From Micromonospora sp. NBC_01813 (GTDB taxonomy: Bacteria; Actinomycetota; Actinomycetes; Mycobacteriales; Micromonosporaceae): 64,000 nt of DNA. The position numbers were made by a program, and so were the translations under genes. Shown one piece after another: positions 7,593-57,923 of the stretch; the stretch's first letter is position 1, and each line of letters begins with the position of its first letter. The notes below the pieces were generated by a model. The model had not been told where the DNA came from, searched no databases, and saw only the letters and a program-made list of their open reading frames with translations. Where the stretch lies: the NCBI RefSeq assembly GCF_035917335.1, contig NZ_CP109067.1, forward strand, positions 4,029,001-4,093,000, read 5' to 3'.

Positions 7593-8780
7593 ATGGACGC
7601 GGTGGGCGTACGGCCGGGTGGCAGCCTGGTGGGGACTCTGGCCAGCGCCTACCGGCGGACGGTGCGCGACGGGCAGTTGGTGGTGAGCTCAGCCGAGGTG
7701 CTGCGCCGGGGCGTGATTCGAGTTCCTGAGCTGCGCCACTTCCCGCCGCCGTGGTCACGGGACTGGCGACAGGGGCCGGAGCCGGTCGACGATGAGCCGC
7801 CGCCGCATCGGTCGCGTCTGTTCCCCGAGTTCGATCAGCAGGTGGAGCTGTTCACCGAGGGTGCGCTGCGGGAAGCGACCCACGACGGCGGTCCCGGCGA
7901 GGCCGTGTTCTCCGGGCTGGTCCGGCACGCCGTCTATGAAGCTGTTCACGAGGCGAGCCGCCTCCACGGGGTGCCCGCCGGAGTCCGCCACCTGCTGGCG
8001 GCGGTGTACGCCGTGCCGGGTAATGCTGCCGCCCGGCTCGCCGAGCAGATGTGGGTGCCCGGCCACGGTGATGATCGTCTGTTGAGCCGGCAGCTACCTC
8101 GGTACCGCGCTGGCGACCCTCTGCCGAACTGGGCTCCGGAGATGCTCAAGGCTATGAGCGTCCTCCCGACGACGATTCCTGTCGTGCCGCGGACCCTCTG
8201 GAAGGCCATCGTGACTACCGGCGGATACTTCCTGCTGCGTCGCCCGTTCCATCGGCGCGGCACCCGTTACGGACATGTCATTCCGATAATCGTGGAGCGG
8301 GATGCCGCCCTACAGGCGATCCGGCTCGGCCGCACGCGCACGGGCACCGTCGAGGTGTTACTGAGCATTCTGGACCTACACGAGCAGCTACACGCTGCCG
8401 GCGTGGACCTGCCGGAGCCGGTCGCCCAGCACAACACCGCCGGTCAGATCCTGCGTACACAGGGGGTCACCTTGCTCGCCGCGACCGTCGCCGCTGCTCG
8501 CTCGCCGGACACGCCGCAGGTCGTTGCCGAGCCGGCTGCGGCGCGGTCGCCGTCACGACTCAGGGCCAGTCGACCCGCACCGCCGCTGGACCCCGATGCC
8601 GAATCCGCACTCCGTGCGGCGAGCATGGCCGCGAGGGAATCCGGTCACCCGTTCGCCGGCACGACACACCTGCTGGCGAGCATCCTGCGGGACCGCGACG
8701 GCCCAGCCGCTCGACTACTGCGCAGACTCGATGCCGACCCCGAGGCCATCCTCGAACAGACATCCGTACGGCCAGACTGA
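7593..8780 (+). CDS. Clp N-terminal repeat domain protein
   Basis: 395 residues without the AAA+ modules of ClpA/ClpB/ClpC. Two or more Clp-N-like helical repeats can be seen: FSGLVRHAVYEAVHEASRLHGVPAGVRHLLAAVY (about residues 110-143) and SALRAASMAARESGHPFAGTTHLLASILRDRDGPAARLL near the C-terminus, with a further degenerate copy around VERDAALQAIRLGRTRTG. Stand-alone Clp-N proteins of actinomycetes may act as adaptors or substrate receptors, but this has not been shown for this gene. The start is ATG 7593, 60 bp after murJ. Confidence 0.75.
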   Translation: MDAVGVRPGGSLVGTLASAYRRTVRDGQLVVSSAEVLRRGVIRVPELRHFPPPWSRDWRQGPEPVDDEPPPHRSRLFPEFDQQVELFTEGALREATHDGGPGEAVFSGLVRHAVYEAVHEASRLHGVPAGVRHLLAAVYAVPGNAAARLAEQMWVPGHGDDRLLSRQLPRYRAGDPLPNWAPEMLKAMSVLPTTIPVVPRTLWKAIVTTGGYFLLRRPFHRRGTRYGHVIPIIVERDAALQAIRLGRTRTGTVEVLLSILDLHEQLHAAGVDLPEPVAQHNTAGQILRTQGVTLLAATVAAARSPDTPQVVAEPAAARSPSRLRASRPAPPLDPDAESALRAASMAARESGHPFAGTTHLLASILRDRDGPAARLLRRLDADPEAILEQTSVRPD

Positions 8781-8876
8781 CGAACCGCGCAGCGCACCGC
8801 TCCCGTGGCGGATGCGCGGGCTACCCGCTCTCCTGGCAGAGCTGGAGACAGGAACGGGTTTCGGAGACAGCCAGGG

Positions 8877-9209
8877 TCACAGAAGCCTGATGCCGGCTCT
8901 CGTGATGTGGGCCGCGAGCACCCTGTGACCTCCGTCGTCACGCCATACTTCGGCGCGCCCACTCTCTCGCAGTAGTTCGTCGCCTACCACGAGGGTGCCG
9001 TCATCCCATTCGGCTGGCCAGCCGTCGAATCTGCGCACCTCGACGAGGCCTCGGGCCACCAACGAGATCAAGCCCGGCCCGAGGAGTTCAGCCAACCAGC
9101 TCGCTGATTCAGCCTCGTCCCAGCCGAGCTCCCACAGGGGAAGCGGCGAATCCTCCAGGGGGCCAAGGACCAGCTCTTCTGCGTGGTCCAGACCTTCGTC
9201 ACCGTCCAT
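8877..9209 (-). CDS. hypothetical protein
   Basis: 110 residues, acidic, starting MDGDEGLDHAEELVLGPLED, with LWELGWDEAESASWLAELLG and GLVEVRRFDGWPAEWDDGTL. The alternation of helix and strand suggests a small winged-helix or immunity-like protein, but no family was recognised. The ATG has AGGAGG seven bases upstream, so translation is likely. It lies just downstream of a frameshifted gene on the same strand (9301-9751). Confidence 0.6.
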   Translation of the reverse strand: MDGDEGLDHAEELVLGPLEDSPLPLWELGWDEAESASWLAELLGPGLISLVARGLVEVRRFDGWPAEWDDGTLVVGDELLRESGRAEVWRDDGGHRVLAAHITRAGIRLL

Positions 9210-9300
9210 CGAGTCCCTCCTCGTCTAGGTCCGGTGCTCCGCGCGCCTGAGCTGATTCAACCGCGACCCGCTCAGATCGGCGGGCGGATCCGCCACCGGG

Positions 9301-16776: not shown

Positions 16777-17706
16777 GTGGCCACCGTACGTCAGTGGTCC
16801 GGCAAGGAGGTCCGGGCACTACGCGAAGCGCGCCGGATGAGCGTTCGTGACTTCGCCGAGCACCTAGGCGTGTCAGACCGCATGGTGTCCAAATGGGAAG
16901 CTGGTGGTCGGTCGATCAAGCCACGCCCGATGAACCAGGCTGCGCTCGACACCTCACTGGAGCGTGCCGGCGCTGATGCGCAGGCACGCTTCGCGCTGCA
17001 GATCGACGCGTCAGCCATCGCATCGATACCCGAGCAGGCTCCGCCGCCTGAGACGGCTCATGCGCGTCATCCGGCGGACGGCAAGCCGATGGCGCTGGTT
17101 GACGCAGGTGTGTACCTCAGCGGCGCGAACAACGAACCAGTCTGGCTTCCCGCCTTCTACATCGACGTCCATCCCACGACGAACGCGGACTATTCGCGGT
17201 TCATCGACGCGACCGGCTACAAGCCTCCCGGCCACTGGCCGGGAGGCATCTGCCCCACGGAACTGGCCGACCACCCAGTGGTCTTCGTGACCTGGAACGA
17301 CGCGAGCGCCTATGCACGCTGGGCGGACAAGAGCCTGCCGAGCTCGCAGCAGTGGGAGAAGGCGGCGCGAGGCCCCGCCGGCAGCGTCTACCCGTGGGGC
17401 AACCAGCCAACCCCCGCCAAGTGCAACGTCCGCGAAGGCGGCATCAGGGACACCACACCCGTCGGCCGCTACCAGAGCGGAACGAGCATCTACGGGGTCT
17501 TCGACCTGTGTGGCAACGTCTGGGAGTGGTGTCGGACCGAGACCACACCGGGCCGCTTCGAACTCAAGGGAAGCGCCTTCACCAGCGGCTTTGAACGAGC
17601 CACGCCCTCGAACTTCAACGACGCCGACGCCTCGATGCTCGACGACGACACCGGATTCCGCTGCGTCGTGGTGGCCGACGCCATGCAGGCACTACTGGCT
17701 GCCTGA
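16777..17706 (+). CDS. XRE HTH fused to SUMF1/EgtB-type domain
   Basis: 309 residues. Residues 8-50 form an XRE HTH (VRALREARRMSVRDFAEHLG, then VSDRMVSKWEAGG). After a linker of about 50 residues comes a formylglycine-generating-enzyme-like domain: MALVDAGVYLSGANNEPVWL, HPTTNADYSRFIDATGY, HPVVFVTWNDASAYARWADK, LPSSQQWEKAARG, YGVFDLCGNVWEWC and the terminal DTGFRCV. The Cys pair and RGGSW motif of active FGE are not seen, so it may be a ligand-binding or non-heme-iron version. GAGAGGAG precedes the GTG. It follows the aminotransferase and may sense its product. Confidence 0.85.
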   Translation: MATVRQWSGKEVRALREARRMSVRDFAEHLGVSDRMVSKWEAGGRSIKPRPMNQAALDTSLERAGADAQARFALQIDASAIASIPEQAPPPETAHARHPADGKPMALVDAGVYLSGANNEPVWLPAFYIDVHPTTNADYSRFIDATGYKPPGHWPGGICPTELADHPVVFVTWNDASAYARWADKSLPSSQQWEKAARGPAGSVYPWGNQPTPAKCNVREGGIRDTTPVGRYQSGTSIYGVFDLCGNVWEWCRTETTPGRFELKGSAFTSGFERATPSNFNDADASMLDDDTGFRCVVVADAMQALLAA

Positions 17707-17784
17707 TGCATGGCTCGCCCCCAGGACTCCCGGTCGCAGGGGTGATCAGGTGGGCGCTGTCCCTCCGGCGGCACGGCTCACCGT

Positions 17785-17850
17785 TCACCGACGACGGTGG
17801 GACGCGCCGTCGAAGCGGTGGCGGGCGATGGTGAACGGTTCGCCGGCTTG
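17785..17850 (-). pseudogene. remnant of a second GPP34 gene (C-terminus)
   Basis: The minus strand encodes AGEPFTIARHRFDGASHRRR followed by a stop, closely matching the end of the GPP34 protein at 13771 (SELFTIARHRLDGAAHRRR). Homology fades within about 70 bp. This marks the left edge of the lower-GC island and suggests deletion or replacement of a GPP34 paralogue. Confidence 0.6.
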
Positions 17851-17945
17851 GCCAGCACCGGGGTTTCCTCCAGCATACGGCAGCAACCGTGCCCCTCATT
17901 CTGGCCGGAATACGATACAACTCACCACAGCAGCAACTGCTTATC

Positions 17946-19145
17946 CTAGGACAAAGGTACGCTCTGTAGAGATACGACAAGCTCTTTCATCGCCCGATCG
18001 CGCTCTATCTGCATAGCGGACTCCCGATACTTCATGCCAACATCAATTGCCTTCGTGACACCAGCAGATGCGAGGGCGGCCACTAGGCTACCGCCAGCCA
18101 TGTAGCCAGCAGCCGCCGAAACCACCGAAACACCAAAACCTGTCACGCCAGTCTTAAGGGCCGCGAGTGCCGGCGACCTATTGGCCACCTTCTGCAGTTG
18201 CTCCATATCCGGAGCGAGTTCCGCACTGATCACACGTCGAGCTTCTACCATTTCGTGTGGTTCCGAAGCCTCACTCAGAGAAATGCACCGAAGAGCCTTA
18301 GCCAAGTTGTGCCGGAAATCCCCGAAGGCACCTTCCTGTTGCCGCACTGCGACCAGCGCATTGATGTCCGGCGAGAAACTTGGCACATAGAGATTCGCTA
18401 GCTGAAAAAGGACCGCATGCCTTCGATCGACTCCAGGATGAACTCCTTCGATAACCTTTTGCAACAACAGTCGCTCCGCCTCACTTCGCAACATCCGGTG
18501 GACTTGATTCTGCCAAAGTCGAGCGAAGAATGAAAAACTGTAAATATCTTCAAGAAATCCTATAGTTGCAGACCGCAAAACCCTTCCCCGCTCGGGACCA
18601 GGAAGTTCTCTAATGTACGGCCAGCTACCCAATTGCTTAAAGTACTCTAAATTTCCGGCAATAGCAGCACTCTCGAGAATCGGCGAGAAGTCGCGCACCA
18701 CCCCGGCCGACGGATGGACACTCGCCGACGTAACAGGCTTGAAGTGCAGCGCACCCTCAGCGAAAAGTGGCCTAACGGATACTAGCCACTGCCCAACCGA
18801 CTCCCGCGTCTCCCGATCGCCGATTGCTAGATACAGCCCAGGATCATCCATGATGACCTCGTGAGCATAAAGAAGTGCCACCGTAGCGTAGCGAGTGAGA
18901 CTAACGATGGGATCGAATGGACCGAACACATCGATGGGGTTTGTGCGGATTATCGGCCTTAAGTTTCCAGATGGAAGCGTCGGCATTCGACTTAGATCTG
19001 AACCAAGGTAGTAGAATTTACGAAACTCATCCAAGTGATCCCTCGGGGCCTCGACAATCCTTTCTAATAGTCCTCGATCGAGCTCGTCGCCCCAAAATTC
19101 CGAGATAATCCTATACGGGTCAGTACGTTCAATATCTGAAGCCAT
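17946..19145 (-). CDS. unrecognised 399-residue protein in the island
   Basis: Starts at ATG 19145 with GGAGG about 14 bases upstream. It has a mainly helical body (DPYRIISEFWGDELDRGLLE, SLTRYATVALLYAHEVI) and a C-terminal hydrophobic, Gly/Ala-rich segment (about 333-370, GFGVSVVSAAAGYMAGGSLV) that may enter a membrane, followed by a short charged helix. No known domain was recognised. Its base composition is clearly lower in GC than the housekeeping genes, and it stands next to an IS630 element and near a Qat cassette. A defence or toxin role is possible but only by location. Confidence 0.65.
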   Translation of the reverse strand: MASDIERTDPYRIISEFWGDELDRGLLERIVEAPRDHLDEFRKFYYLGSDLSRMPTLPSGNLRPIIRTNPIDVFGPFDPIVSLTRYATVALLYAHEVIMDDPGLYLAIGDRETRESVGQWLVSVRPLFAEGALHFKPVTSASVHPSAGVVRDFSPILESAAIAGNLEYFKQLGSWPYIRELPGPERGRVLRSATIGFLEDIYSFSFFARLWQNQVHRMLRSEAERLLLQKVIEGVHPGVDRRHAVLFQLANLYVPSFSPDINALVAVRQQEGAFGDFRHNLAKALRCISLSEASEPHEMVEARRVISAELAPDMEQLQKVANRSPALAALKTGVTGFGVSVVSAAAGYMAGGSLVAALASAGVTKAIDVGMKYRESAMQIERDRAMKELVVSLQSVPLS

Positions 19146-19331
19146 ACCACCGGACCTCGCCTCCGTCTCGGCGCGAATGCGTCGCCGTCCCAACGGTAAC
19201 AACCTGGAGCAACATCGGTTCTCGCTCGCTTCGCCCAATCCTTCCGCCCGTACGCGAATACTCGGCGGTCGAGGTTGCAATTTGCCGGCGCAGGCGCCTT
19301 CGTTTGTCACAATCCGGGTGCAATCAGCCAC

Positions 19332-20425
19332 CTAGTGTCCCGTGTCTGAAGTCTTTTCGCGGTTTGCTTTGGTGAGGATCTGGTCGGCGGTTTTGGTCCA
19401 GGCGAAGGGTTTGCATCGCTGGTTGTAGCCGTCGATGAACGCACGGATCGCGGCGGTCAGGTCGGGCACGGAGGTGAAGGTGCCGCGGCGGATGGCCTGG
19501 CGGGTGATGATCCCGAAGAAGATCTCCACCATGTTCAGCCAGGAACAGCTGGTGGGGGTGAAGTGCATGGTGATGCGGGGGTGGCGGGCCAGCCAGGCTT
19601 TGACGTTCGGGTGGTTGTGGGTGGCGTAGTTGTCGACCACGACGTGCAGTTGCACTCGGGGGTGGGCCTTGGCGACCTGCTTGAGGAAGGCCAGGAACTC
19701 CACGTTGGAGTGCCGGTCGAAGCAGGCGTCGGCGCTGACGCGTCCGGTGGCCACCTCCAGGGCGGCGAACAGGGTGGTGGTGCCGTTGCGGACGTAGTCG
19801 TGGGTCCGGCGCTCCGCCAGTCCGGGGCGGAGCGGCAGGATCGGCGCGGTCCGGTCGAGCGCCTGGACCTGGGACTTCTCGTCGACCGAGACCACCACCG
19901 CGCCGGCCGGCGGGTTCAGGTACAGGCCGACCACGTCCCGGATCCTGGCTTCCAGTTGAGGATCGGTGGAGAACTTGAACGTCTCCGACCGGTGCGGCTG
20001 CAGGCCCCATTTGCGCCAGACACGTGAAACGGTGGCGAAGCTGACCGGGGTTCCTCCCGGCGCATCTGGTCGGCCAGCAGCCGCGCCGACCAGTGCGTCA
20101 CTCCGAGGTCCGCTGGCGGCCGCCCGTCGTCGGAGACGGTACGCACCACGATGGCGACTTCGTCGACCACCGACGGTCGGCCCGAGCGCCCCAGGTCGGC
20201 CAACGCGTCGATGCCGCCGGCGTCGTAGCGGTTACGCCACGCCAGGACCGTCGGGGTCGACACCCCGACCTGACGGCCGATCGCCGCGTTCGGCATACCT
20301 TCAGCGGCCAGTAGAACAATCCTCGCCCGCTGCGCCAGACCCGCCGCTGCCTGTGATGACCGGGTCAGTGCGCGTAGACGAGACCCATCTCCCGGGCGAA
20401 GCGCCAAAGGCGCGGCAACAGACAT
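19332..20425 (-). pseudogene. IS630 transposase, frameshifted
   Basis: The first frame (20425 leftward) has the HTH part: LAQRARIVLLAAEGMPNAAI and VSTPTVLAWRNRYDAGGIDA. After QMRREE near 20050 the sense moves to another frame, VSFATVSRVWRKWGLQPHRS, and continues into VVSVDEKSQVQALDRTAP, VVDNYATHNHPNVKAWLA and HFTPTSCSWLNMVEIFF, the DDE catalytic core. The final stop TAG (19332-19334) uses the TA target duplication. A single frameshift may be a mutation; programmed frameshifting is known in some IS630 members but no clear slippery site was identified. Confidence 0.8.
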
Positions 20426-20477
20426 GCCTCATTGTCCCGCACCTAAACCACAAAACCACTTACGACACGCGACACTA
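19333..20477. mobile_element. IS630-family insertion sequence
   Basis: About 1.14 kb with imperfect terminal inverted repeats: GTGTCCCGTGTCTGAAGT (from 19335) and the complement of ACTTACGACACGCGACAC (to 20475), which agree at most positions. Both ends are flanked by TA (19333-19334 and 20476-20477), the target duplication typical of IS630/Tc1 elements. It carries one frameshifted transposase on the minus strand. Confidence 0.8.
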
Positions 20478-20480
20478 GCG

Positions 20481-20778
20481 AGTGCCGGAGCAGCAGCTTC
20501 CGGTGGGGCCACCAGGCCGGTCAAGCGGATCGGAGCGCCCGACGGGCCAACGCCAACACCGACCCGAACAGCGACTCCCGCAGATAGACCAGGGCGTCGT
20601 CATCGGCGCACACCCAACGAAGGCCACCATGCCGCAGCTCCGGCACCTCCCGACGCAACGCTACCAACGCCCGGTACACCCCGAACGTCGCACCGTCCCA
20701 CGAGCCCGGCCGATCCCACGGCATCGGCGTACGCGACGACCCTCGCGGTGTCGCCCCGCAACCCAACTCATCCCTGGC
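20481..20778 (-). pseudogene. internal fragment of a GH13 amylase gene
   Basis: About 300 bp closely matching 27764-28068 inside the intact GH13 gene, in the same orientation. It encodes SSRTPMPWDRPGSWDGATFG and RREVPELRHGGLRWVCADDD. A 7-bp deletion relative to the intact gene (around 20535) breaks the frame, and both gene ends are missing. It starts three bases after the IS630 element and stops where the lower-GC DNA begins. Confidence 0.8.
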
Positions 20779-20982
20779 AAGAGGGCGCGCGTCCACTGCA
20801 CAGAACTGTTCTACCGAGTAGAGTGCGTCTAAACACCTGTCCGTACATGCAGATGATCGTTGCCTTGTTCCTATATAAAGGAATTCCTTTCTCTCGCGGA
20901 GGTCTCCAAGTGCAACGCATCGAAATTTTGCCTCACCTTTCGCATCTTGACAAACATCAACGAACACCACAATGAAATCCTA
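20779..20982. other. spacer downstream of the qat operon
   Basis: About 200 bp of lower-GC DNA between the amylase fragment and the qatD stop. No gene or clear terminator was seen. Confidence 0.4.
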
Positions 20983-21729
20983 TTAGTTATCCGCCCATTC
21001 TTCATCGACGAGCAATAACCTCTCGTTATTACGGATGACGCGCTCAGCCTCGGCGCGATCTGTGGTCCAGACATCCGAGAGTGATTGACACGCCAACCCG
21101 ATATCCCAGGGATGCAAGGCGGTTCGTCTAAGCTGCGCAAATGGTCCATCGGTTTCGAGAAGCACTCGGTCGCGGGGCATTGCGGCTACGAGCGCTTTTC
21201 CCTTAGCGCCGCCGAGCATCGCAGGCCCCACACTGAACCAGCAGCCGCGTTCGACCGCTCGCTGAAGCTCGGAGTGGGTGCCGGAGAACCAATGTAGGAC
21301 AGGAAAGCGGACACTATCGAACTTGTCGAGCAAGTCGAGGACTGGTGTTGCTGCCCGTCGGCTATGTATCGATATAACCTTGTTTCCCGCCTCACTGCAA
21401 GCGTGAAGTATGTGCTCGAAAACCTTTTTCTGCTGCGCCCAGGTCGATCTGAGTACGGGAGAACCGTCGAGACCAACTTCTCCAACGAAGCGAGTCTCAC
21501 CAAGATGCAGTTCAAATTTCTTAAGCTCATTTTTGCGTTCCTCCGCCAACTGCGGGTGCAGACCGAGGGCCGTCCTGATAACCGAACGCCCGCGCGCCAG
21601 TCGCAACGTTCCCACCCACGCCGAAGGCGTGGTTGTTACGGACAGCACGCCGATCCCCATGCGTTGAGCTTGGTCAATTATTTCAGCTGGCCGAGGATAT
21701 AGGTCGAGATGACAGTGAAAATCGATCAT
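20983..21729 (-). CDS. qatD: QatD, TatD-like metallohydrolase of the Qat defence system
   Basis: 248 residues of the TatD nuclease fold: MIDFHCHLDL (metal histidines H5 and H7), FVGEVGLDGSP (metal glutamate), IHSRRA, LHWFSGTHSEL and LLETDGPFAQL. It is more divergent than the housekeeping TatD at 57036. In the QatABCD anti-phage system the fourth gene encodes a TatD-like DNase; here it is the last gene of an operon, its ATG overlapping the qatC stop by ATGA. It probably cuts nucleic acid during phage attack, but mechanism is not settled. Confidence 0.88.
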   Translation of the reverse strand: MIDFHCHLDLYPRPAEIIDQAQRMGIGVLSVTTTPSAWVGTLRLARGRSVIRTALGLHPQLAEERKNELKKFELHLGETRFVGEVGLDGSPVLRSTWAQQKKVFEHILHACSEAGNKVISIHSRRAATPVLDLLDKFDSVRFPVLHWFSGTHSELQRAVERGCWFSVGPAMLGGAKGKALVAAMPRDRVLLETDGPFAQLRRTALHPWDIGLACQSLSDVWTTDRAEAERVIRNNERLLLVDEEWADN

Positions 21730-23003
21730 GCTAGGCCGTACTTCGCGTGCAGCCGGCCAAGTTCGTCAACGCCTCGTTGAAGCATCGCGCGTAGCGCTGC
21801 CTTGTTCGTGATTCGCGGGGAGCCTAGTGTCGGCCCGAGCCACCTATCTAGCCCATCTTCGGCTACCACTAACCGAGCCATGGCCACAGAACGCACATCG
21901 TCGAAAGCAGCGTGGTCCTCATCCGACCGACCGAGGTCTGTGTATACATATTTCGTGAGATCCTCTCGACCCCAAGCCACGAAGGCGGCGCGGCGAATCT
22001 GGCACGGAAGGCACCGTCCGCAATGCGTATAGTTGAATCGCTGGAAGCGCCCGCAACTGGTCGAGACTGCGGCTTCGGCGCCCAGAAGGGTTTGGTCCAG
22101 ACACGCACGAAGCATATCGCCCTTAGTCTTCTCAGCGTATGGATTGGTGATCATGACACGAAGTCCAACTCCGTCAAGGATGTCCTGCATGCGCGCAAGG
22201 AACTCCGGATGGGCGGTGCGCGTACTGAGACTTCCGATCCGCGCATAGGTGAGCGGGGGATTGATCGCGATAAACCCGTTCTCACAGACATATAGCGGAA
22301 TAGTGTCACCGTCGTGGTAGCGCTCTGTTGCTGTAGCGGCCAACACGGCGAATGCCAAGAAAATAAGCGAACGTGAACGTTGAGATGTTTCCTTAAGGCC
22401 GCGTCGAGTGCTTGCGTTGTGGTTGACCGATATATATTCAAGGCCGCCACCGATGATCCCCGCGAACCTGCGTTGCTTGTCGGCGTCTCCGCGCACCGTC
22501 TGGCTGACAGCGAAGAGGCGTCGCCCTTCGGCGCTAAGGTCAATGGCGCCGATCAGGGAGTCAAGTCCTCCTGACAGCAGCACAATCGCATCAGTGTCTG
22601 GACGGCGCGGCTTCTTCGGGGCATCCGGCAGAACACCGCCGTCACGAAAGGCAACCTGCCATCGGTCAGTAGTCAGGAATGCAAGCGCCGAAGACAAGGA
22701 GTCTGCGAAGAGATCCCAGCGTTTCGAATCGTGCAGGGCCACGTCGAGTCGAATCTCACGAGTCCATCCATCCGGACTCTTGGCTCGCTTCGTCGCTCCG
22801 TCGGCGACGACAACAGAGAGCGCGATTGCCAGCAAATCCCACGCGGCCGGGTCTGGGAGCAAAGCTCGCCGCCGTATCGTCGCAGCGGCTGACGCGCCAG
22901 CACTTGCCACATCGCGTGAAGCGGCACGTCCGAATAGGACGATTGGTGTCGACATCTCATCGGCGACCGGGAGAGCAGCCCTGGGGCCGCTTACGAATCT
23001 CAT
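21726..23003 (-). CDS. qatC: QatC, QueC-like protein of the Qat defence system
   Basis: 425 residues. A PP-loop SGGLDSLIGAIDL (about 144-156) and a C-terminal zinc cluster CGRFQRFNYTHCGRCLPC (C317, C328, C331, C334) are those of QueC 7-cyano-7-deazaguanine synthases. A long N-terminal extension of about 135 residues is not found in QueC. QatC is the QueC-like member of QatABCD; no other queuosine genes are nearby, which supports a defence rather than tRNA role. It overlaps qatB and qatD by four bases on each side. Confidence 0.9.
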   Translation of the reverse strand: MRFVSGPRAALPVADEMSTPIVLFGRAASRDVASAGASAAATIRRRALLPDPAAWDLLAIALSVVVADGATKRAKSPDGWTREIRLDVALHDSKRWDLFADSLSSALAFLTTDRWQVAFRDGGVLPDAPKKPRRPDTDAIVLLSGGLDSLIGAIDLSAEGRRLFAVSQTVRGDADKQRRFAGIIGGGLEYISVNHNASTRRGLKETSQRSRSLIFLAFAVLAATATERYHDGDTIPLYVCENGFIAINPPLTYARIGSLSTRTAHPEFLARMQDILDGVGLRVMITNPYAEKTKGDMLRACLDQTLLGAEAAVSTSCGRFQRFNYTHCGRCLPCQIRRAAFVAWGREDLTKYVYTDLGRSDEDHAAFDDVRSVAMARLVVAEDGLDRWLGPTLGSPRITNKAALRAMLQRGVDELGRLHAKYGLA

Positions 23004-23812
23004 TTCATGTACTCCTCGAACACGTTGAGTGTTTCGCGGAGTGCTACTGCGGTGAGACGTGCAACGTTCGCCGTAGTAGCAGGTCCGCCTCGTTCGCGGA
23101 TAGATCTGAATGCGGCCGAGACTTCCTGGCTAATAAACTCTCGGACCTGCCGCAGGCGTTGTAGACCTGTTGCCGGATCGGGTGCCTTGCCCAGAATCGT
23201 CTTCTGCACGTCGAGACAAAAGCGACCGTAGACATCGAGTGCTGCGTATCGCTCGATAACGAACTCTCGTTGTACGTCAGTGAGTGCGAGCAGGTCGGCA
23301 TCCGGGTAACGAACAAGAAGGTCAGTGAGAGCATCACGAACCGCACGGCGCGAGGATTCTCCGTCCTGCGTCCCGTTTAGAGGACTCGCAGCGTCAACGA
23401 TGGCATCCAACACGACGTTGACGTCGCTACCGCTTGCGAGCGCTACGTCCCTGAGTGACTGTCCGTCTGGTGTGCTTCCTGACTGGAGTACCCCGTTCAG
23501 CCGGCCCGCCGTTGCTGCCGTGCTACCGAGACGGCGGCTCATCGTATTGCTGCCGCCGTAGCCAGTTCTCACGTAGTGGCCAAGCGCTCGTCGCAGGTCG
23601 CGACTGTCACCTGAACGTACGAACCCGCCGAGTCCACGGCGCGCATCACGGAAACGACCACGAGGGGCCAGCGGTACTGGCTCCTTCTCTTCGTCAAGAT
23701 CTTCTGGTGGTGGATCTTCGTCTGGCGGTACCGGCGGGTCTATCTCGTCGGCCCATGGTGGCACCAAGGGAACGCCCGGGCCAGGACCGTTGCTACTCTG
23801 CGAGGTTCCCAC
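23000..23812 (-). CDS. qatB: QatB of the Qat defence system
   Basis: 270 residues. A Pro/Asp/Glu-rich disordered N-terminus (PPVPPDEDPPPEDLDEEKEP) is followed by an Arg/Gly-rich stretch (RDARRGLGGFVRSGDSRDLR, GGSNTMSRRLG) and a helical C-terminus. There is no enzyme motif. By operon position between the KAP ATPase and the QueC-like gene it corresponds to QatB, the partner of unknown chemistry. The GTG start lies inside the last 20 bases of qatA, which indicates tight coupling. Confidence 0.82.
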   Translation of the reverse strand: MGTSQSSNGPGPGVPLVPPWADEIDPPVPPDEDPPPEDLDEEKEPVPLAPRGRFRDARRGLGGFVRSGDSRDLRRALGHYVRTGYGGSNTMSRRLGSTAATAGRLNGVLQSGSTPDGQSLRDVALASGSDVNVVLDAIVDAASPLNGTQDGESSRRAVRDALTDLLVRYPDADLLALTDVQREFVIERYAALDVYGRFCLDVQKTILGKAPDPATGLQRLRQVREFISQEVSAAFRSIRERGGPATTANVARLTAVALRETLNVFEEYMK

Positions 23813-25664
23813 TCTGCGCCCGATTCTCGATGACCTTCTTCACTGGACCTCCAACATCTGGCGAATTCTTCCAGCGGGAGAGCACATCAGCCGCCCACGG
23901 AAGAGACGCGATCCTAGGTACAATACTTGGCTCGATCTGCTTGCCTGGACGTTCAATGAGAAAGCCCGCGACCGCAGCGCCCTGCGTCGGATCAGCATTT
24001 GCAACCGCGATGCATGCCTGAAGGATTGGCGGAACACCCCACGCCTGTTCTTGGCGGGCGCGAGCGAGTAAGCGTTCCATGATGATCGCGACCTCTGGGC
24101 GCTGGAGAGCCTGCAGATCGCTTTCCAGCGCCTCCGCTTCTTGAGGGTGCTCCAACAACGCCGTAAGCAATGCTGCGGCTTCTGAGGAAAGCCGGTCGGC
24201 CGACGTGATCAGCGGAGCTTGCTCACGCCCGACGTATAGAGCGCCTCGAAGATCGTCGTCCGCGAAGGCCGGCGGCAGAGCAAGCCACTCGCGAATAAAC
24301 ACGTCATCCCACACGCCTACGGGTTCGTATCCTTGGCCGGCCGCTGCGGCCTCTTCCCACTCGGCAAGGATCCTCGGTTTGCCATCAGGATCGGCGTTGA
24401 CCGCCGACGTCAGTGCCACGTAGGCGGCCTTCGGCGCGAGCCGCTCGAATAGGAGCAGCTTTGCTAGGACCGCCTCGTCCACCCCGACACCTTGGGCAGC
24501 CGAGATCGCCATGCGGATCGACAGTGCGTTGAGGAACCGCTTGATAAGCCGAGGGTTTCCTGCAATGCGGTCAGAGGTCGTCATGAGAGGTGCAAGACGC
24601 TCGGCAGTATCGAGTCGCGCCGTTAGGGCAGCAGGCAGAGACACGCCGCAGTTCGCGATGTAGTTCTTGTCGACACGCTTTCCCTTCCAGGATTCTCGGA
24701 GTTGTGATGCAATTGCGATTCGCAACGCATCCTTTTCCTCGCTGCCGAGTTCACTGTTTTCAATGAACAGCATCATCATATATGCGCGCACCTCTTGGGT
24801 GCCGAGCGCCGGGACACGAATGGGTATCTGGACGAGTTTATCGAAATAGTTTGTGACTAGCGTTTCGTCATCAAGTCCGCGAAAGTGCTTTTTAACAGCG
24901 TGCTTAATCATTCCGTCGTCGGCGGCAATGACAAAAGCGGTGTTCTTAAGGAACAAGAATAGACGGATTGCTTCGAGCGTTGAGATTGTCGTATCCGGAA
25001 GGCAACGATCGAGGTCATCGATGAGCACCACCAAGGTGACATCGATATGCGCCAGCGCATCCTCGAACGAGTCACGAAGAGCTTGTATCTCCTTAGGGGG
25101 CGAGAACTCCTGCTTGGGATCGAGGAGGGCACGCCCCGTGGCCGCGACTGTGGATGCGAACGAGCCGGCGTTCTTCAGGTCATCCTCGGTAATATCGCCG
25201 TCCGTCACATCTCTGACAACTCCAGCTATCTCGCCAGGTAGGCCAATGGGAGGAAGGCCGAGGGCGACCGACGCCGCTGGCAGTGCGAGCAATTTGGTGA
25301 GGCGAAACCACTTGACGCGGCGCAGAAATTCGCCAGCTTTCTCTATTCCCTTTTTTCTCTTGGTGGCCTCATCGTTCAGTTTGCTCGCAATAACGTCCAG
25401 AAGTGCAGCGCGCGCATCGTCGTATCCTTGATAGAGCCAGGCGTTGAACTCTACGAAGAGATACTTCTCGGGCGCATTCTGCGGTTGACGCTTGTTCAGC
25501 GAGGCTCTCGTAAGCTGAATCATCGACGACTTGCCGGCACCCCAGTCGCCTGACACGCCGATTGACACGGGCCTGTCGTTCGCTCGGACGACCAGCTCCG
25601 CGATCGTGTCGGCCACGCCCTCGAAGTTGAGGAAGTCCCTGTCTGTCTCGTTGTCGGGCCACAT
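23793..25664 (-). CDS. qatA: QatA, KAP-family P-loop ATPase of the Qat defence system
   Basis: 623 residues. KAP NTPase features: GVSGDWGAGKSSM Walker A (37-48), hydrophobic LTKLLALPAASVALGLPPIG (possible membrane contact, about 122-142), LVVLIDDLDRC Walker B (211-221) and AFVIAADDGMIKHAVKKHF sensor region. QatA is the ATPase of QatABCD. ATG 25664 was chosen, with GAAGG about 11 bases upstream; a GTG at 25721 would extend it. First gene of the operon. Its GC is lower than in the flanking housekeeping genes. Confidence 0.9.
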   Translation of the reverse strand: MWPDNETDRDFLNFEGVADTIAELVVRANDRPVSIGVSGDWGAGKSSMIQLTRASLNKRQPQNAPEKYLFVEFNAWLYQGYDDARAALLDVIASKLNDEATKRKKGIEKAGEFLRRVKWFRLTKLLALPAASVALGLPPIGLPGEIAGVVRDVTDGDITEDDLKNAGSFASTVAATGRALLDPKQEFSPPKEIQALRDSFEDALAHIDVTLVVLIDDLDRCLPDTTISTLEAIRLFLFLKNTAFVIAADDGMIKHAVKKHFRGLDDETLVTNYFDKLVQIPIRVPALGTQEVRAYMMMLFIENSELGSEEKDALRIAIASQLRESWKGKRVDKNYIANCGVSLPAALTARLDTAERLAPLMTTSDRIAGNPRLIKRFLNALSIRMAISAAQGVGVDEAVLAKLLLFERLAPKAAYVALTSAVNADPDGKPRILAEWEEAAAAGQGYEPVGVWDDVFIREWLALPPAFADDDLRGALYVGREQAPLITSADRLSSEAAALLTALLEHPQEAEALESDLQALQRPEVAIIMERLLARARQEQAWGVPPILQACIAVANADPTQGAAVAGFLIERPGKQIEPSIVPRIASLPWAADVLSRWKNSPDVGGPVKKVIENRAQSGNLAE

Positions 25665-25681
25665 AACGTACTCGCCTTCTT

Positions 25682-26034
25682 TCAAAAGTGCGGGGCTTCC
25701 TCCCAGAGCACGGGTCGACACTGCGGCAGTCGCTCGGACGTGTGCGCCTCAACCCAGTCGGAGAAAAGAACTGTGATGGGGATGCACTGGCCTGCGGCAT
25801 CCCGATCTCCGCCATCGCAAGTCCGGTCCCTTCCGTGCGGATCTGCACGTCGCTCGCATCGATCCGCGACGTCAGCGCTCGGCCGATGCGGGCATCCGTA
25901 CCCCTTGGCAGCCACAACGAGTCAGTGTTGCAACCCGGCGGCAGGCCTTCAAGAGTCAACTGGCCAGCACGCCTCGCCCTTCGGGTGCCAAGTCCGTGAT
26001 AGTCGGCCATCCGCTTCACCCATGGACCAAGCAT
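25682..26034 (-). pseudogene. frameshifted gene remnant upstream of qatA
   Basis: From 26034 the minus strand reads MLGPWVKRMADYHGLGTRRA through IRTEGTGLAMAEIGMPQ; after about 25795 the sensible frame shifts to QCIPITVLFSDWVEAHTSER and ends WEEAPHF with stop at 25682-25684, 17 bp before qatA. The family is not recognised. It may be a broken gene that once headed the cassette, or chance coding-like sequence. Confidence 0.35.
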
Positions 26035-26142
26035 TACGGTGAGTGATGAGAACGCCGCAGTGTGTGGTCATGTCAACGTCAGGACGTTCGCTCGGCGATT
26101 TCGTGGTGTGATGGCAGGTCAGCACCATGAGGAGCATCGTCA

Positions 26143-26376
26143 GTGTCCGACTATCCGGTTCTCATGCACACCGCCCTGGACGCCACCGGCGCCCGGGCCC
26201 TCGCTGAGTTCTACCGCGAGTTCCTCGAACTGCAATGCCTCCCTGGTGACGAACTTCCGGCTGACGGAACGACCGATGACAAAGACTGGCTCGTCCTGGT
26301 CGACGGGAACGGCAACCGCAAGCTTGCCTTTCAACAGGTGCCTACATTTCGACGCGGCCTTCGATGCTCCAGTTGA
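26143..26376 (+). pseudogene. truncated VOC (glyoxalase-like) protein
   Basis: From GTG 26143 the frame reads SDYPVLMHTALDATGARALA, EFYREFLELQCLPG and DKDWLVLVDGNGNRKLAFQQ, the first two-thirds of a VOC-family metalloprotein repeat. After about 26340 the similarity ends and the frame closes after another dozen residues. The second half is absent, so it is a fragment, probably cut when the adjacent DNA was acquired. Confidence 0.65.
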
Positions 26377-26471
26377 CATAGTCTGCTAACGTCTCTAGGC
26401 GCGACCATCGATCACTCGCAGGGCGCCAGCCATGCGCGAGCGTTGGTTCGCCCATCCTTCGGAGGTCATCG

Positions 26472-27329
26472 GTGTTCTTTCATAACTTTGCATCATGGTC
26501 ACCCACGAGCCTGCTGACATTGGCGGGGATGGCACAGCCAGATGAGTGGGAATATCGACACACGGCCAGCGAACGACCCCTACCGATTCTTCGTAACTAT
26601 ATTGTCTATACTTTCCGGCAGGCCTACCTCCAAGGGCGCGTTCTCGAAGTTGCCGATGTTGACAATAAGAGGTATGCCGCCTTCAATACAGGGCTACTAA
26701 CCCCACATTATGAGCGCATTTTTGGCTTCTTTATTCAACAAACCCGGCAAGAACTCCCTCAGCCATGGTTCCTTCAAGACTTCGTTCGGGAAAGCGATTA
26801 CCGCCTGATGCGGTTTCAAAAATTGCCCGAAAAGGCGACGTACTTTGACGACCCGTCTGATCTGCTCTACGATCCACGGCTGGACCTTAGGGTCCAGTAC
26901 GAGCACATCGTTAACGACCGACTAGAACGGTTTCCGAAGGATCTACAGACGGACGAGCGTCGTCGAACTGAGGCCTTGCGCCAAGCAGTGGCGCATGCGG
27001 TCTTCCGAGTGGAGCAAAATTACAAGACTGCTATCCCGCAATTTCACTGGAATTTGCGGGATGAGAAGGAACCTGGCAAGCTTCAGTTGTTGCTTCCGCT
27101 GTGCCTTGAGGACGTAGGCCGGGCCGATCTAGCCCTCAGCATCGACAAGATGAATGGGGTATATCGTGCAGCCACGGTGCTGACACTGGATATGGCATAC
27201 AACAACGCGCGGCTGATTGCTCGGCCGGACAAAGAGTGGCTGGAGCCACTGCCGGGGGCTAGACGTGATGACTCTGACGAGGCAGAGCCTCAAGAGGCCA
27301 ACCGCGGCTCAACAACGGCCGAATCCTAA
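26472..27329 (+). CDS. DUF3825 domain protein
   Basis: 285 residues from GTG 26472 with GGAGG six bases upstream. The DUF3825 pattern covers most of the length: PLPILRNYIVYTFRQAYLQG, AAFNTGLLTPHYERIFGFF, LPEKATYFDDPSDLLYDPRL, QNYKTAIPQFHW, LQLLLPLCLEDVGRADLALS and AATVLTLDMAYNNARLIARP. DUF3825 proteins are found with RNA-binding and conflict-system domains, but their activity is unknown. It lies beside the Qat cassette on the other strand, in DNA of lower GC; a defence role is possible. Confidence 0.82.
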   Translation: MFFHNFASWSPTSLLTLAGMAQPDEWEYRHTASERPLPILRNYIVYTFRQAYLQGRVLEVADVDNKRYAAFNTGLLTPHYERIFGFFIQQTRQELPQPWFLQDFVRESDYRLMRFQKLPEKATYFDDPSDLLYDPRLDLRVQYEHIVNDRLERFPKDLQTDERRRTEALRQAVAHAVFRVEQNYKTAIPQFHWNLRDEKEPGKLQLLLPLCLEDVGRADLALSIDKMNGVYRAATVLTLDMAYNNARLIARPDKEWLEPLPGARRDDSDEAEPQEANRGSTTAES

Positions 27330-27660
27330 CTGCGAGTTCCGCCTGAGGAACAGTCGAAATTTCCGGGTACTGCTGTCCTCGCCTACGACAAGAGGAAGAG
27401 CCGTCAACGACGAGAACGAGCTGCCGAATTACAGGGGTTGAATATCCACTCCAGGCTACACGCGAATATGCTTCTCACATGCCGCGATTTGCATACTTAG
27501 CCCATCCGATTGCCTGCAAGGGCTGCCTTGCAAGAGTCGCCGCATGACGACAGTCAGCCGCTGCCATACGTCGGTGCCGAGCTGGACGCCAGCCACATCG
27601 ACAGGCGACTTCGATGTGGCTGGCGTCCAGCTTGTGGTCCCCCCGGGGTATGACTTGCTG
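27330..27660. other. 331-bp gap at the right side of the island
   Basis: No gene was recognised. It contains a very stable perfect hairpin at 27580-27632 and appears to mark the return to high-GC backbone DNA. Confidence 0.5.
27580..27632. terminator. perfect 22-bp stem-loop
   Basis: Two 22-base arms (27580-27601 and 27611-27632, inner part GGACGCCAGCCACATCGA) are exact inverse complements around a nine-base loop. It lies between two convergent genes, so it most likely terminates both; a mobile-element end is the alternative. Confidence 0.65.
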
Positions 27661-29544
27661 TCAGGGGAGGCGCCAGAGTTGGAAGGTGGGGCCGTCGGCG
27701 GGCAGGGTCAGGGTGCCGTCAGCCTGCGGGCGCAGCGGGGGTGCGCCGCCGTACAGGTTGACCAGTGCCGGAGCAGCAGCGTCCGGCGGGGCCACCAGAC
27801 CGGTCAACCGCACCGGAGCACCCGACGACCGCCGGGCCAACGCCAACACCGACCCGGACGGCGACTCCCGCAGATAGACCAGAGCGTCGTCATCGGCGTA
27901 CACCCACCGAAGGCCGCCGTGCCGCAGCTCCGGAACCTCCCGACGCAACGCCACCAACGCCCGATACACCCCGAACGTCGCACCGTCCCACGAGTCTGGC
28001 CGATCCCACGGCATCGGCGTCCGCGAACCCTCCCCGTTCTCCCCCCGCAACCCCAACTCGTCCCCGGCGAACACCATCGGCGTCCCCGGCAACGTGAACT
28101 GCAACCCGGCCGCCACCTCCTGCCGACCCGCGTCCCCCACCACCGTCCGAATCCGGGCCGAATCATGCGACCCGAGCAGCTGCCACGAATGCACCAACGA
28201 CCGCCACGACACCAACGCCCCGAAGGCGCGCATCGTCGCCAACGCCGCCGACCCGGACCGGGCCGGCACCCCACCCGGTACGCCGAGGAAGTCCGGCAAC
28301 TCCAACGTCGGTGACCGCAGCCAGCTCCACACCGGCCGGGTGAACCCGGCGTAGTTCATCGTGCCGTGCCAACCATCAGCGTCCAGGTCACGGGTGAAGT
28401 CGTGCCCGTGCTCGGCGACGATCAGCCCATCCGGCCGAGTGTCGGCGACCGCCCGGCGCAGCAAGGCGGCCACCTCCAGGGTGAGCGCGTCGGCACCGCG
28501 CCGGCCAGTCATGTTGGCGACGTCGATCCGCCAACCGTCCAGCCCGTACGGCGGCAGCAGCCACCGCCGCGCCACCGAGGCTGGCCCATCGACGAAGCGT
28601 CGCCGCAGCTCAGCGCTGCCCCAGTTGAGTTTCGGCAGCGACTTCACGCCCAGCCACGATTCATAATCGCCGTCGTCGCCGAAGTAGTACAGCTCCCGCT
28701 CCGCCGACGACACGTCCGACACGGCGGCGGTGAACCACGGGTGGGCGTCGCCGGTGTGGTTGCTGGTGATGTCGCCGAGCAGCCGCCACCCGCGAGCGTG
28801 CACGGCCGCCGACAGCCGCGCCAGGGCCTCGTCCCCGCCGAGCAGCGGGTCGACGTGGTCGAACGCGGCGGCGTCGTACCGGTGATTGGACCGGGCCGGG
28901 AAGATCGGCGTCAGGTAGACGGTGTTGACGCCGAGCCGCTCCAGGTGGTCGAGCCGCTCCCGGATGCCGTCCAGGTCACCGCCGTAGAACTGGGCCGGCG
29001 TCTCCGGCCCGCGCCCGACGACCGGGGTGTCCCAGTCGCACCGGATCGCCCACTCCGGCAGCTCGCGCCCGTCAGCGGCAGCCGACCGGGCGAACCGGTC
29101 CGGGAAGATCTGGTAGATCACCGCGTCGGCGGCCCAGGCCGGCGGCGCATCGTGGGTGACGAGCCGGAAGTCGGTGGCGTCCGGCACGTCGTGGTCGACC
29201 TCGCCGACCCCGGTCAACCAGCGCCGCCCGCCGCCGCCACCAGCAAAGCCGCCGGCAGCAGACCCGCCGCCGGCCAGCAGGAAACGGTACGGCGTGACCG
29301 GGTTACCGGCCTCCACCTCGCCCCGCCACCACACGTCCCCGTTCGGATCCTGCCGGTCGACCACCGCCTCCGTGAAGCGCGGCTCACCGTCGGCTGTGGA
29401 GCGTACCCACAGCTTGTCGACCGGCCGCGCACCCGCCGGCACCCGGACGAAGACCGACACCCGATCACCCAGGTGTACCCCGGCGGCGGCACCCGGCGCA
29501 TACAACGCTGACCCGTCATGGTGTGCCTCGAACAGCTGGCCCAC
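27661..29544 (-). CDS. GH13 alpha-glycosidase, neopullulanase/maltodextrin-hydrolase-like
   Basis: 627 residues. An N-terminal beta domain (to about 125) precedes the GH13 barrel: DAVIYQIFPDRF, GVNTVYLTPIFPARSNHRYD, DITSNHTGD (region I), GWRIDVANMTG (nucleophile Asp), GLIVAEHGHDF (acid Glu) and LLGSHDSARIRT (third Asp). It probably cleaves imported maltodextrins in the cytoplasm. It starts with GTG three bases after the malG stop and so belongs to the malEFG operon. A 300-bp stretch of it is repeated at 20481-20778. Confidence 0.88.
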   Translation of the reverse strand: MGQLFEAHHDGSALYAPGAAAGVHLGDRVSVFVRVPAGARPVDKLWVRSTADGEPRFTEAVVDRQDPNGDVWWRGEVEAGNPVTPYRFLLAGGGSAAGGFAGGGGGRRWLTGVGEVDHDVPDATDFRLVTHDAPPAWAADAVIYQIFPDRFARSAAADGRELPEWAIRCDWDTPVVGRGPETPAQFYGGDLDGIRERLDHLERLGVNTVYLTPIFPARSNHRYDAAAFDHVDPLLGGDEALARLSAAVHARGWRLLGDITSNHTGDAHPWFTAAVSDVSSAERELYYFGDDGDYESWLGVKSLPKLNWGSAELRRRFVDGPASVARRWLLPPYGLDGWRIDVANMTGRRGADALTLEVAALLRRAVADTRPDGLIVAEHGHDFTRDLDADGWHGTMNYAGFTRPVWSWLRSPTLELPDFLGVPGGVPARSGSAALATMRAFGALVSWRSLVHSWQLLGSHDSARIRTVVGDAGRQEVAAGLQFTLPGTPMVFAGDELGLRGENGEGSRTPMPWDRPDSWDGATFGVYRALVALRREVPELRHGGLRWVYADDDALVYLRESPSGSVLALARRSSGAPVRLTGLVAPPDAAAPALVNLYGGAPPLRPQADGTLTLPADGPTFQLWRLP

Positions 29545-57035: not shown

Positions 57036-57923
57036 TCACCACGGCCCGAAGACGCGCTCGCCGGTCGCCGAGATCGCCGCGCAGAGCTCGTCGAGGTCGG
57101 CACCGGTGGTCTCGGCCAACGACCGGACGGTGTGCGGGATCAGGTAGGAGGCGTTCGGCTGGCCCCGGTGCGGCATCGGCGTCAGGTAGGGCGCGTCGGT
57201 CTCGACCAGCAGCTGGTCCAGTGGGGTCACCTGAGCCGCCGCCCGCAGCGCCGCCGCGTTGCCGAACGTCACCGTGCCGGCGAAGCTGAGCACGAAGCCA
57301 CGGCGGACACACTCGGCGGCGAAGTCGGCGTCACCGGAGAAGCAGTGCATCACCACGGTGGCCGGTGCGCCTTCGTCGTCGAGCACCCGCAGCACGTCGG
57401 CGTGGGCGTCCCGGTCGTGGATCACCAACGGTTTGCCGTACCGCTTGGCGATCGCGATGTGCGCCCGGAAGCTGGCCTCCTGCGCCGCCAGCCCGTCCGG
57501 TCCGGTCCGGAAGTGGTCCAGCCCGGTCTCCCCGACGCCGCGTACCCGGTCGGCGGCAGCCAGCGCCTCGATGCCACGCAGCGCCTCGTCCAGGTCGGCC
57601 AACCGGGGCGCCTCGTTGGGGTGCAGCGCCACCGTGGCGACCACCGCCGGCACCCGCGCCGCCAGGTCGGCGCCCCAGCGCGACGAGTCCAGGTCGACGC
57701 CGACCTGGACCAGCCGGTCGACCCCGACCGCAGCGGCCCCGGCGACCAGCGTGGCGACCGGGTCGGCGCCGGCGTCCCGGCCGGGTGCCGCCGGTTCGGC
57801 GACGGTCAGGTCGAGGTGGGTGTGACTGTCGATCACCGGTACCGGCAGCGGCGCGGGCGGCGGCGGGAATTCCCCGGTCCGCCGGGCCGCCCGTTGCCGA
57901 CGGGTTTCAGCTGGCTGAGTCAT
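57036..57923 (-). CDS. tatD: TatD-family deoxyribonuclease
   Basis: 295 residues. [10 protein letters not shown] (metal histidines), [20 protein letters not shown] (metal Glu), [24 protein letters not shown] and [20 protein letters not shown] are full TatD motifs. It is the housekeeping copy, next to metG and rsmA as in many bacteria, and differs from the island copy qatD. Confidence 0.93.

What the first reader, a model, noticed from the sequence alone, without database searches (positions are those of the whole stretch)
20983..25664. Complete QatABCD anti-phage cassette with overlapping genes
Four minus-strand genes in order: KAP ATPase, QatB-like protein, QueC-like PP-loop protein and TatD-like nuclease. 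They overlap by 20, 4 and 4 bases. This is the arrangement known as the QatABCD defence system. QatC lacks any queuosine neighbours and has a long N-terminal extension, and a second, housekeeping TatD is present at 57036.
Basis: partly seen in the sequence, partly recalled or inferred. Interest (0 to 1): 0.75.

Follow-up and report, generated by a model that had tools for sequence, protein, structure and literature searches.

The report
QatABCD anti-phage cassette, correctly identified
This is an ordinary, complete copy of a known bacterial virus-defence system called Qat, in a stretch where related bacteria keep other defence-like genes; a survey of its relatives suggests that its key enzyme does not need the unusual nucleobase that it has been proposed to attach to its partner protein.

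Summary
Four minus-strand genes (20983-25664) encode QatA-QatB-QatC-QatD, overlapping by 20, 4 and 4 bases. All four match PADLOC Qat models; QatB, QatC and QatD pass NCBIfam cut-offs (QatA does not: 438 of 600 bits). Residues reported essential in 2026 are present: QatB's MGTS start; QatC's SGGxDS, Thr/Thr pair and zinc cysteines. This is a new member of a known kind.

Added interest: what does QatC attach to QatB? By my reading of the hits, of 60 genomes with a QatC match 23 lack QueE and QueC; 15 of these also lack QueD; 8 of those also lack TGT. All 15 carry qatABCD with intact QatB/QatC motifs. In the class sample QueE occurs in 1 of 11 Qat genomes and 22 of 383 others. This argues against 7-carboxy-7-deazaguanine (CDG) as obligate QatC substrate; import is not excluded. 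The window's host itself probably makes CDG (two folE-queD-queE clusters, scores below equivalog cut-offs) but has no TGT.

The cassette lies in a variable region beside an amylase-like gene; five of six same-genus genomes hold other defence-like genes there. Anti-phage activity was not tested.

The parts
23793..25664 (-). qatA: KAP-family P-loop NTPase, 623 aa
   Evidence: PADLOC QatA 2e-142; Pfam KAP_NTPase 4.5e-64; NCBIfam QatA 438 bits, below its cut-off of 600; start supported by relatives
23000..23812 (-). qatB: 270 aa, begins MGTSQSSNGPGPGVPLVPPW (GTG start); putative protein substrate of QatC
   Evidence: PADLOC QatB 1.4e-31; NCBIfam QatB 128.8 bits over cut-off 100; PDB 9vll_A 4e-15; (M/V)GT(S/C) start upstream of qatC in 89 of 92 loci, the window's own locus included
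21726..23003 (-). qatC: QueC-like PP-loop protein, 425 aa; SGGLDS 144-149, STRTAHP 260-266, cysteines 317, 328, 331, 334
   Evidence: PADLOC QatC 1.1e-90; NCBIfam QatC 298.8 bits over 280; PDB QatC 9zee_B 4e-49; alignment
20983..21729 (-). qatD: TatD-family nuclease, 248 aa
   Evidence: PADLOC QatD 2e-90; NCBIfam QatD 324.1 bits over 230; PDB 3gg7 6e-82
20481..20778 (-). truncated copy of the 3' part of the amylase-like gene, at the far side of the insert (setting, not part of Qat)
   Evidence: 88% identical to 27764-28068; the repeat finder D1 and D2; no hit in 20 shuffles of the island
27661..29544 (-). full amylase-like (maltodextrin glucosidase-like) gene that borders the variable region (setting)
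   Evidence: NCBIfam maltodextrin glucosidase 394.7 bits, below cut-off 568; 94-96% identical in six same-genus genomes
26472..27329 (+). DUF3825 gene in the same insert; apparently unrelated cargo
   Evidence: Pfam DUF3825 1e-74; no relative in 91 other qatC loci

Best explanation
A complete, apparently intact QatABCD anti-phage cassette, acquired horizontally into a variable, defence-rich region beside an amylase-like gene. Most likely mechanism: the disordered N-terminal tail of QatB, with Gly2 exposed after removal of the start residue, enters the QatC active site; QatC uses ATP to modify that glycine; the modified or QatC-bound QatB restricts phage, while QatA (KAP NTPase) and QatD (TatD nuclease) widen the range of phages. 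Published for the P. aeruginosa system (PMC13279940): QatBC complex, sufficiency of QatBC against lambda-vir, need for QatB Gly2, the QatC ATP site and the Thr/Thr pair. Shown here: the corresponding residues are present. Inferred, there and here: that a modification occurs. My further inference: the attached group is not CDG but something that most bacteria have.
For: Family models and gene order; PDB relatives; corresponding residues S144, D148, S149, R211, F215, T261, T263 and four cysteines of QatC, and MGTS of QatB. Horizontal origin: Qat genes 56-60% GC against 68% for the window and nearest relatives in other genera and phyla. Non-CDG inference: 23 of 60 genomes with a QatC match lack QueE and QueC, 15 of these also QueD, 8 of those also TGT, with qatA, qatC, qatD relatives and a QatB start in all 15; no association of Qat with QueE or QueC in the class sample.
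Against: No activity was tested. QatA is below the NCBIfam cut-off. No modification of QatB has been demonstrated in the text I read. The window's own host probably can make CDG, so its own case does not exclude CDG. Imported CDG, or cassettes idle in some hosts, are not excluded; some of the genomes are MAGs.
Confidence: 0.75

Rival explanations
1. QatC attaches CDG to QatB Gly2, as Cap9 does to its CD-NTase in type IV CBASS; hosts without CDG synthesis import it or carry an idle cassette.
For: QueC fold, N-terminal glycine motif and analogy with Cap9; this model is proposed in PMC13329287 (passages) and considered in PMC13279940. The window's host has folE-queD-queE clusters, and so do many hosts (QueE in 35 of 60 by my reading).
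Against: 15 of 60 genomes lack QueD, QueE and QueC, 8 of them TGT too, with intact qatB/qatC motifs; QatC and QatB are under purifying selection between two such hosts (dN/dS 0.055 and 0.081); no association with QueE in the class sample; the CDG-binding Tyr/Asp are Thr/Thr, and CDG was absent from the crystal.
Confidence: 0.2
2. QatC transfers no small molecule: ATP binding or hydrolysis drives an adenylated intermediate or a conformational change of QatB, and Gly2 is needed only to fit the active site.
For: Essential ATP site but no reaction reconstituted in vitro; no CDG-dependence visible in the survey.
Against: Strong conservation of an N-terminal Gly-Thr-Ser/Cys start (89 of 92 loci), which resembles an acceptor site as in type IV CBASS.
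Confidence: 0.25
3. The cassette is a non-functional passenger.
For: It sits near a split IS630 transposase and a truncated gene copy, and QatA is below its NCBIfam cut-off.
Against: All four frames are open, overlaps are kept, and the catalytic motifs sought in QatC and QatB are intact.
Confidence: 0.06
4. QatC is a canonical QueC working in queuosine or preQ0 synthesis.
For: Partial match to Pfam QueC, 35 bits over residues 265-344.
Against: TIGR00364 20.3 bits against a cut-off of 150.3; no TGT match in the genome; two canonical QueC elsewhere in it.
Confidence: 0.01

Closest known systems
QatABCD with solved QatBC complexes (PDB 9zee/9zef and 9vlk/9vll; P. aeruginosa and, by inference from the paper's text, E. 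coli)
   Same: Gene order, QatB MGTS start, QatC SGGxDS, Thr/Thr pair, R/F of the ATP pocket, four zinc cysteines, N-terminal extension
   Different: QatC matches at 171 and 161 bits, QatB at 49-59 bits. In the window ten residues separate the first two zinc cysteines (317, 328), against the C(x)19CGxCxxRR pattern given for the QatC cluster in PMC13329287. The window QatB has two extra residues before the conserved Pro/Trp (P18/W20 against P16/W18).
Cap9 of type IV CBASS
   Same: QueC-like enzyme acting on a protein partner with an N-terminal glycine motif
   Different: Cap9 keeps the CDG-binding Tyr/Asp, lacks the extensions and modifies a CD-NTase; QatC has Thr/Thr and QatB
[quoted passage not shown]
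   Same: PP-loop fold and zinc site
   Different: QatC scores 20.3 bits on TIGR00364, cut-off 150.3; the host has two true QueC elsewhere

Membership tests
QatABCD defence system | Four adjacent genes qatA-qatB-qatC-qatD in this order | tested here: met
   same order in related loci
QatABCD defence system | QatA family model | tested here: inconclusive
   PADLOC 2e-142, but NCBIfam 438.4 bits against a cut-off of 600
QatABCD defence system | QatB with N-terminal glycine motif (MGTS) | tested here: met
   NCBIfam 128.8 bits, cut-off 100; MGTS start
QatABCD defence system | QatC with SGGxDS, Thr/Thr pair, zinc cysteines, N-terminal extension | tested here: met
QatABCD defence system | QatD, TatD-family nuclease | tested here: met
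   324.1 bits, cut-off 230
QatABCD defence system | Protects against phage | not testable with these tools
   needs plaque assays
Canonical QueC | Score over the QueC equivalog cut-off (TIGR00364) | tested here: not met
   20.3 bits, cut-off 150.3
CDG-dependent protein deazaguanylation (Cap9-like) | CDG-binding Tyr/Asp pair in the active site | tested here: not met
   T261/T263 at the positions of P. aeruginosa T278/T280
CDG-dependent protein deazaguanylation (Cap9-like) | Host can make CDG (QueD and QueE) | tested here: inconclusive
   The window's host probably can, but 15 of 60 hosts show no QueD, QueE or QueC
Type IV CBASS | CD-NTase and Cap10 beside the QueC-like gene | not tested
   no dedicated search was made; the six ORFs scanned with PADLOC gave no CBASS protein except a weak QueC hit of QatC (1.2e-5)

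The most novel reading that the evidence does not exclude
Probability: 0.5. Interest if true: 0.7.

Novelty: new member of a known kind. Interest (0 to 1): 0.45.

Why it matters
The cassette itself is one more copy of a described system. What matters is that the distribution of its family speaks to a question that the 2026 structure paper leaves open: which reaction QatC catalyses. If Qat is kept intact in genomes without any 7-deazaguanine enzyme that was sought, work on its chemistry should look beyond CDG, and the question can be settled with single-gene deletions in laboratory E. coli. The region beside the amylase-like gene is also a place to look for defence systems in this genus.

Tried and rejected
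Considered and rejected: QatC as a true QueC. DUF3825 (26472) and the 461-aa ORF (17946) as extra Qat parts: tblastn at E up to 1e-3 finds neither in 91 other qatC loci (flanks up to 6 kb, shorter in many), and neither matched PADLOC. G314 as a QatC genome: 23 bits over 41 positions, dropped. G355 (L023): a divergent QatC-like protein without the Thr/Thr motif and without a detected MGTS-type QatB; it stays in the 60-genome tables but is not among the 11 Qat genomes of the class sample.

Limits of the CDG survey. Of 387 relatives the scan kept 80 loci. I sent 50 of the 80, favouring isolates and actinobacteria (all of these except the MAG locus L092) plus some MAGs of other phyla; 2 of the 50 (L038, L071) were not held and 30 were never sent. 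With 11 genomes of the class sample and the window's own that makes 60. 'QueE present' is my reading, not its tally (39 of 60 at E up to 0.001): a match starting near the profile start with E about 1e-8 or better counts (the weakest is G439, 1.2e-8 over 44 positions, beside its QueD); hits above 1e-6 were read as other radical-SAM proteins. This gives 35 of 60. Detection control: of 35 genomes with canonical QueC, QueE was missed in 2 (G404, G440) and the QueD family in 4 (G403, G410, G418, G440), both in 1. PF01242 also hits PTPS proteins that are not QueD, so QueD presence is generous. Completeness is 95-100% for the seven class-sample genomes among the 15 and not told for the eight others, of which G398 and G433 are MAGs. 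Uptake of CDG cannot be excluded. The CDG-minus label is clustered on the QatC tree, which was built by the quick method with long branches flagged. dN/dS with dS above 1 is unreliable; I rely on L027/L028. One locus in the set, L091, has a broken qatB frame and a stop in qatC.

No co-occurrence test of Qat with CDG synthesis was seen in paper searches; the paper of Oh and Bae cited there (PMC13376578) is not held and may contain a queD or queE deletion test. AlphaFold was not run. Type IV CBASS genomes were not surveyed as a positive control.
Full report
Observation. The qatA start at 25664 is supported by L025, which aligns over residues 1-623 at 82%.

Identity. PADLOC gives QatA 2e-142, QatB 1.4e-31, QatC 1.1e-90 and QatD 2e-90. 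NCBIfam equivalog cut-offs are passed by QatB, QatC and QatD; QatA reaches 438 of 600 bits. Pfam gives KAP NTPase, the C-terminal part of QueC, and TatD, and nothing for QatB. Among PDB sequences QatC matches 9zee_B and 9vlk_A, QatB matches 9vll_A and 9zee_A, QatD matches 3gg7 and 9xsn, and QatA has no match at E up to 0.001.

Mechanistic signatures. The Nat Commun 2026 paper (PMC13279940; parts 1, 2, 3 and 5 of 6 read) reports for the P. aeruginosa system that QatB and QatC form a 1:1 complex which alone suffices against lambda-vir, that QatB Gly2, QatC S156/S161 and T278/T280 are needed, that T278/T280 stand where other QueC proteins bind CDG with Tyr/Asp, and that the reaction is unresolved. 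Read through the alignment, the window residues are S144, D148, S149, R211, F215, T261, T263 and cysteines 317, 328, 331, 334; QatB begins MGTSQSSNGPGPGVPLVPPW. Ten residues separate the first two zinc cysteines, against C(x)19C in the Biochem J 2026 paper (PMC13329287; passages only).

Relatives. In a class-wide sample QatC matched in 13 of 394 genomes; leaving out G314 (spurious) and G355 (divergent) there are 11, the window's host included. A scan of genome contigs found 387 relatives and kept 80, the nearest in an uncultured Serinicoccus (79%), Mycolicibacterium (73%), Agrococcus (69%) and Leucobacter (68%). In 91 loci (these 80 and 11 of the class sample) tblastn with the window proteins found QatA in 84, QatB in 80, QatC in 91 and QatD in 78. 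Eight loci (seven Pseudomonas, one Vreelandella) have qatABC but no recognised qatD, and L112-L114 have qatC and an MGTS-type qatB start without recognised qatA or qatD; this fits the published view of QatBC as the core. A (M/V)GT(S/C) start lies upstream of qatC in 89 of 92 loci, the window's own included; the misses are L023, L084 and L103.

The CDG question. Cap9 of type IV CBASS joins CDG to an N-terminal glycine, and CDG is made from GTP by FolE, QueD and QueE. If QatC did the same, hosts should be able to make CDG. The window's host probably can: it has folE-queC-queD-queE at L008:4548-7110, folE-queD-queE at L009:6625-8390 and a second queC at L007:8505-9206. The two QueC pass the equivalog cut-off; the two QueD (87.2 and 80.5 of 89.25 bits) and the two QueE (best 65 and 109 bits, cut-offs 206-240) do not, so the assignment rests partly on gene order. 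The genome shows no TGT, so these clusters do not serve tRNA queuosine in the known way.

The survey. Across 60 genomes with a QatC match, the QueD family was found in 40 of 59 and in the window's host; canonical QueC over its cut-off in 35 of 60; QueE, by my reading, in 35 of 60. Twenty-three lack QueE and QueC; 15 of these also lack the QueD family; 8 of those also lack TGT: G117, G129, G331, G360, G379, G396 (Agrococcus baldri), G398 (a Nocardioidaceae MAG) and G400 (Cellulosimicrobium marinum). A second QueE model gave no match in 24 of the 25 QueE-negative genomes and one partial hit (3.5e-5, G432) in the other.

Controls. All 15 carry relatives of QatA, QatC and QatD and a QatB start, and the QatC motifs SGGxDS, ST-x-(T/S)-x-HP, TKG and the four cysteines are present in each. 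Among 35 genomes with canonical QueC the QueE search failed in 2 and the QueD search in 4, both in only 1, so a pathway missed by all three searches in 15 genomes is unlikely. On the QatC tree the CDG-minus label (no QueE and no QueC) needs at least 10 changes, 5 of them forced by starred branches; it is also clustered, with 0 of 500 shuffles as low. Between Agrococcus (L027) and Leucobacter (L028), both without QueD, QueE and QueC, dN/dS is 0.055 for QatC and 0.081 for QatB. In the class sample QueE at E up to 1e-8 occurs in 23 of 394 genomes and canonical QueC over its cut-off in 12 of 394; of the 11 Qat genomes only the window's host has either (Fisher p 0.49 and 0.29; with 11 genomes the test has little power). 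So no association of Qat with CDG synthesis is seen, and Qat is kept where none was found. This agrees with the authors' hint that Thr/Thr may mean another substrate, and speaks against obligate deazaguanylation of QatB with CDG. It does not identify the substrate.

Setting. GC is 56-60% for the Qat genes and 54% for the DUF3825 gene, against 68% for the window. The insert lies between the full amylase-like gene (27661-29544) and a truncated copy of its 3' part (20481-20778, matching 27764-28068 at 88%). In six same-genus genomes that gene is 94-96% identical, while the DNA beyond its stop codon differs; five of the six hold extra partial copies nearby (G442, G444, G445, G446, G447; only short pieces in G445), and two fragments in G444 end at gene positions 28069 and 28070, like the window's at 28068. 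The left flank (window 14000-15654) is seen in two of the six stretches (L129, L133). Of 20 cargo ORFs sent to PADLOC, chosen from the longer list, hits include GajA/GajB and PDC-M30 (G446), LmuB with weaker LmuA and LmuC (G443), PDC-S39 (G444), IetA (G445) and an OLD-like ATPase (G442); in G447 the one ORF sent had no hit. This looks like a defence hotspot; how the cargo enters is not established.

Verdict. The finding is right and the system is known. The interest lies in the CDG survey, which narrows an open biochemical question and points to a simple decisive experiment.

Noticed in passing
window 15655-27660; L128-L133 (same-genus genomes): Variable region next to the amylase-like gene, with truncated 3' copies of that gene in the window and in five of six same-genus genomes, and different defence-like cargo (Gabija, Lamassu-like, PDC-S39, IetA, OLD-like) in five of six; three fragments in two genomes end at nearly the same gene position (28068-28070). 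A possible defence hotspot with an unexplained recombination footprint.
   Followed up: partly
L008:4548-7110, L009:6625-8390, L007:8505-9206 (window's own genome): Two folE-queD-queE clusters and two queC in a genome without TGT; L009 lacks queC beside it and continues with two ORFs (8380-9294, 9294-10370) that match no Pfam or NCBIfam model. Their product is unknown.
   Followed up: partly
L055, L057, L058, L060, L062, L064, L065, L067: Seven Pseudomonas and one Vreelandella locus with qatABC but no recognised qatD.
   Followed up: partly
L112, L113, L114: QatC with an MGTS-type QatB start but no recognised qatA or qatD nearby: possible minimal QatBC loci, in genomes without QueE and QueC.
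   Followed up: partly
L023 / L115 (G355): Divergent QatC-like protein in which the Thr/Thr motif is replaced (AAKAVHP), no MGTS-type QatB found upstream, in a genome with QueD and QueE but no QueC.
   Followed up: no
window 19332-20425: IS630-family transposase split over two overlapping frames (19332-19934 and 19916-20425) next to the truncated amylase copy.
   Followed up: no
window 17946-19331: ORF of 461 aa, 54.5% GC, no Pfam, NCBIfam or PADLOC match, in the same variable region.
   Followed up: no
L091 (Xanthomonas sp. LMG 31884): qatB frame ends early and qatC holds a stop near its end, followed by a transposase-like ORF: a degraded cassette.
   Followed up: no
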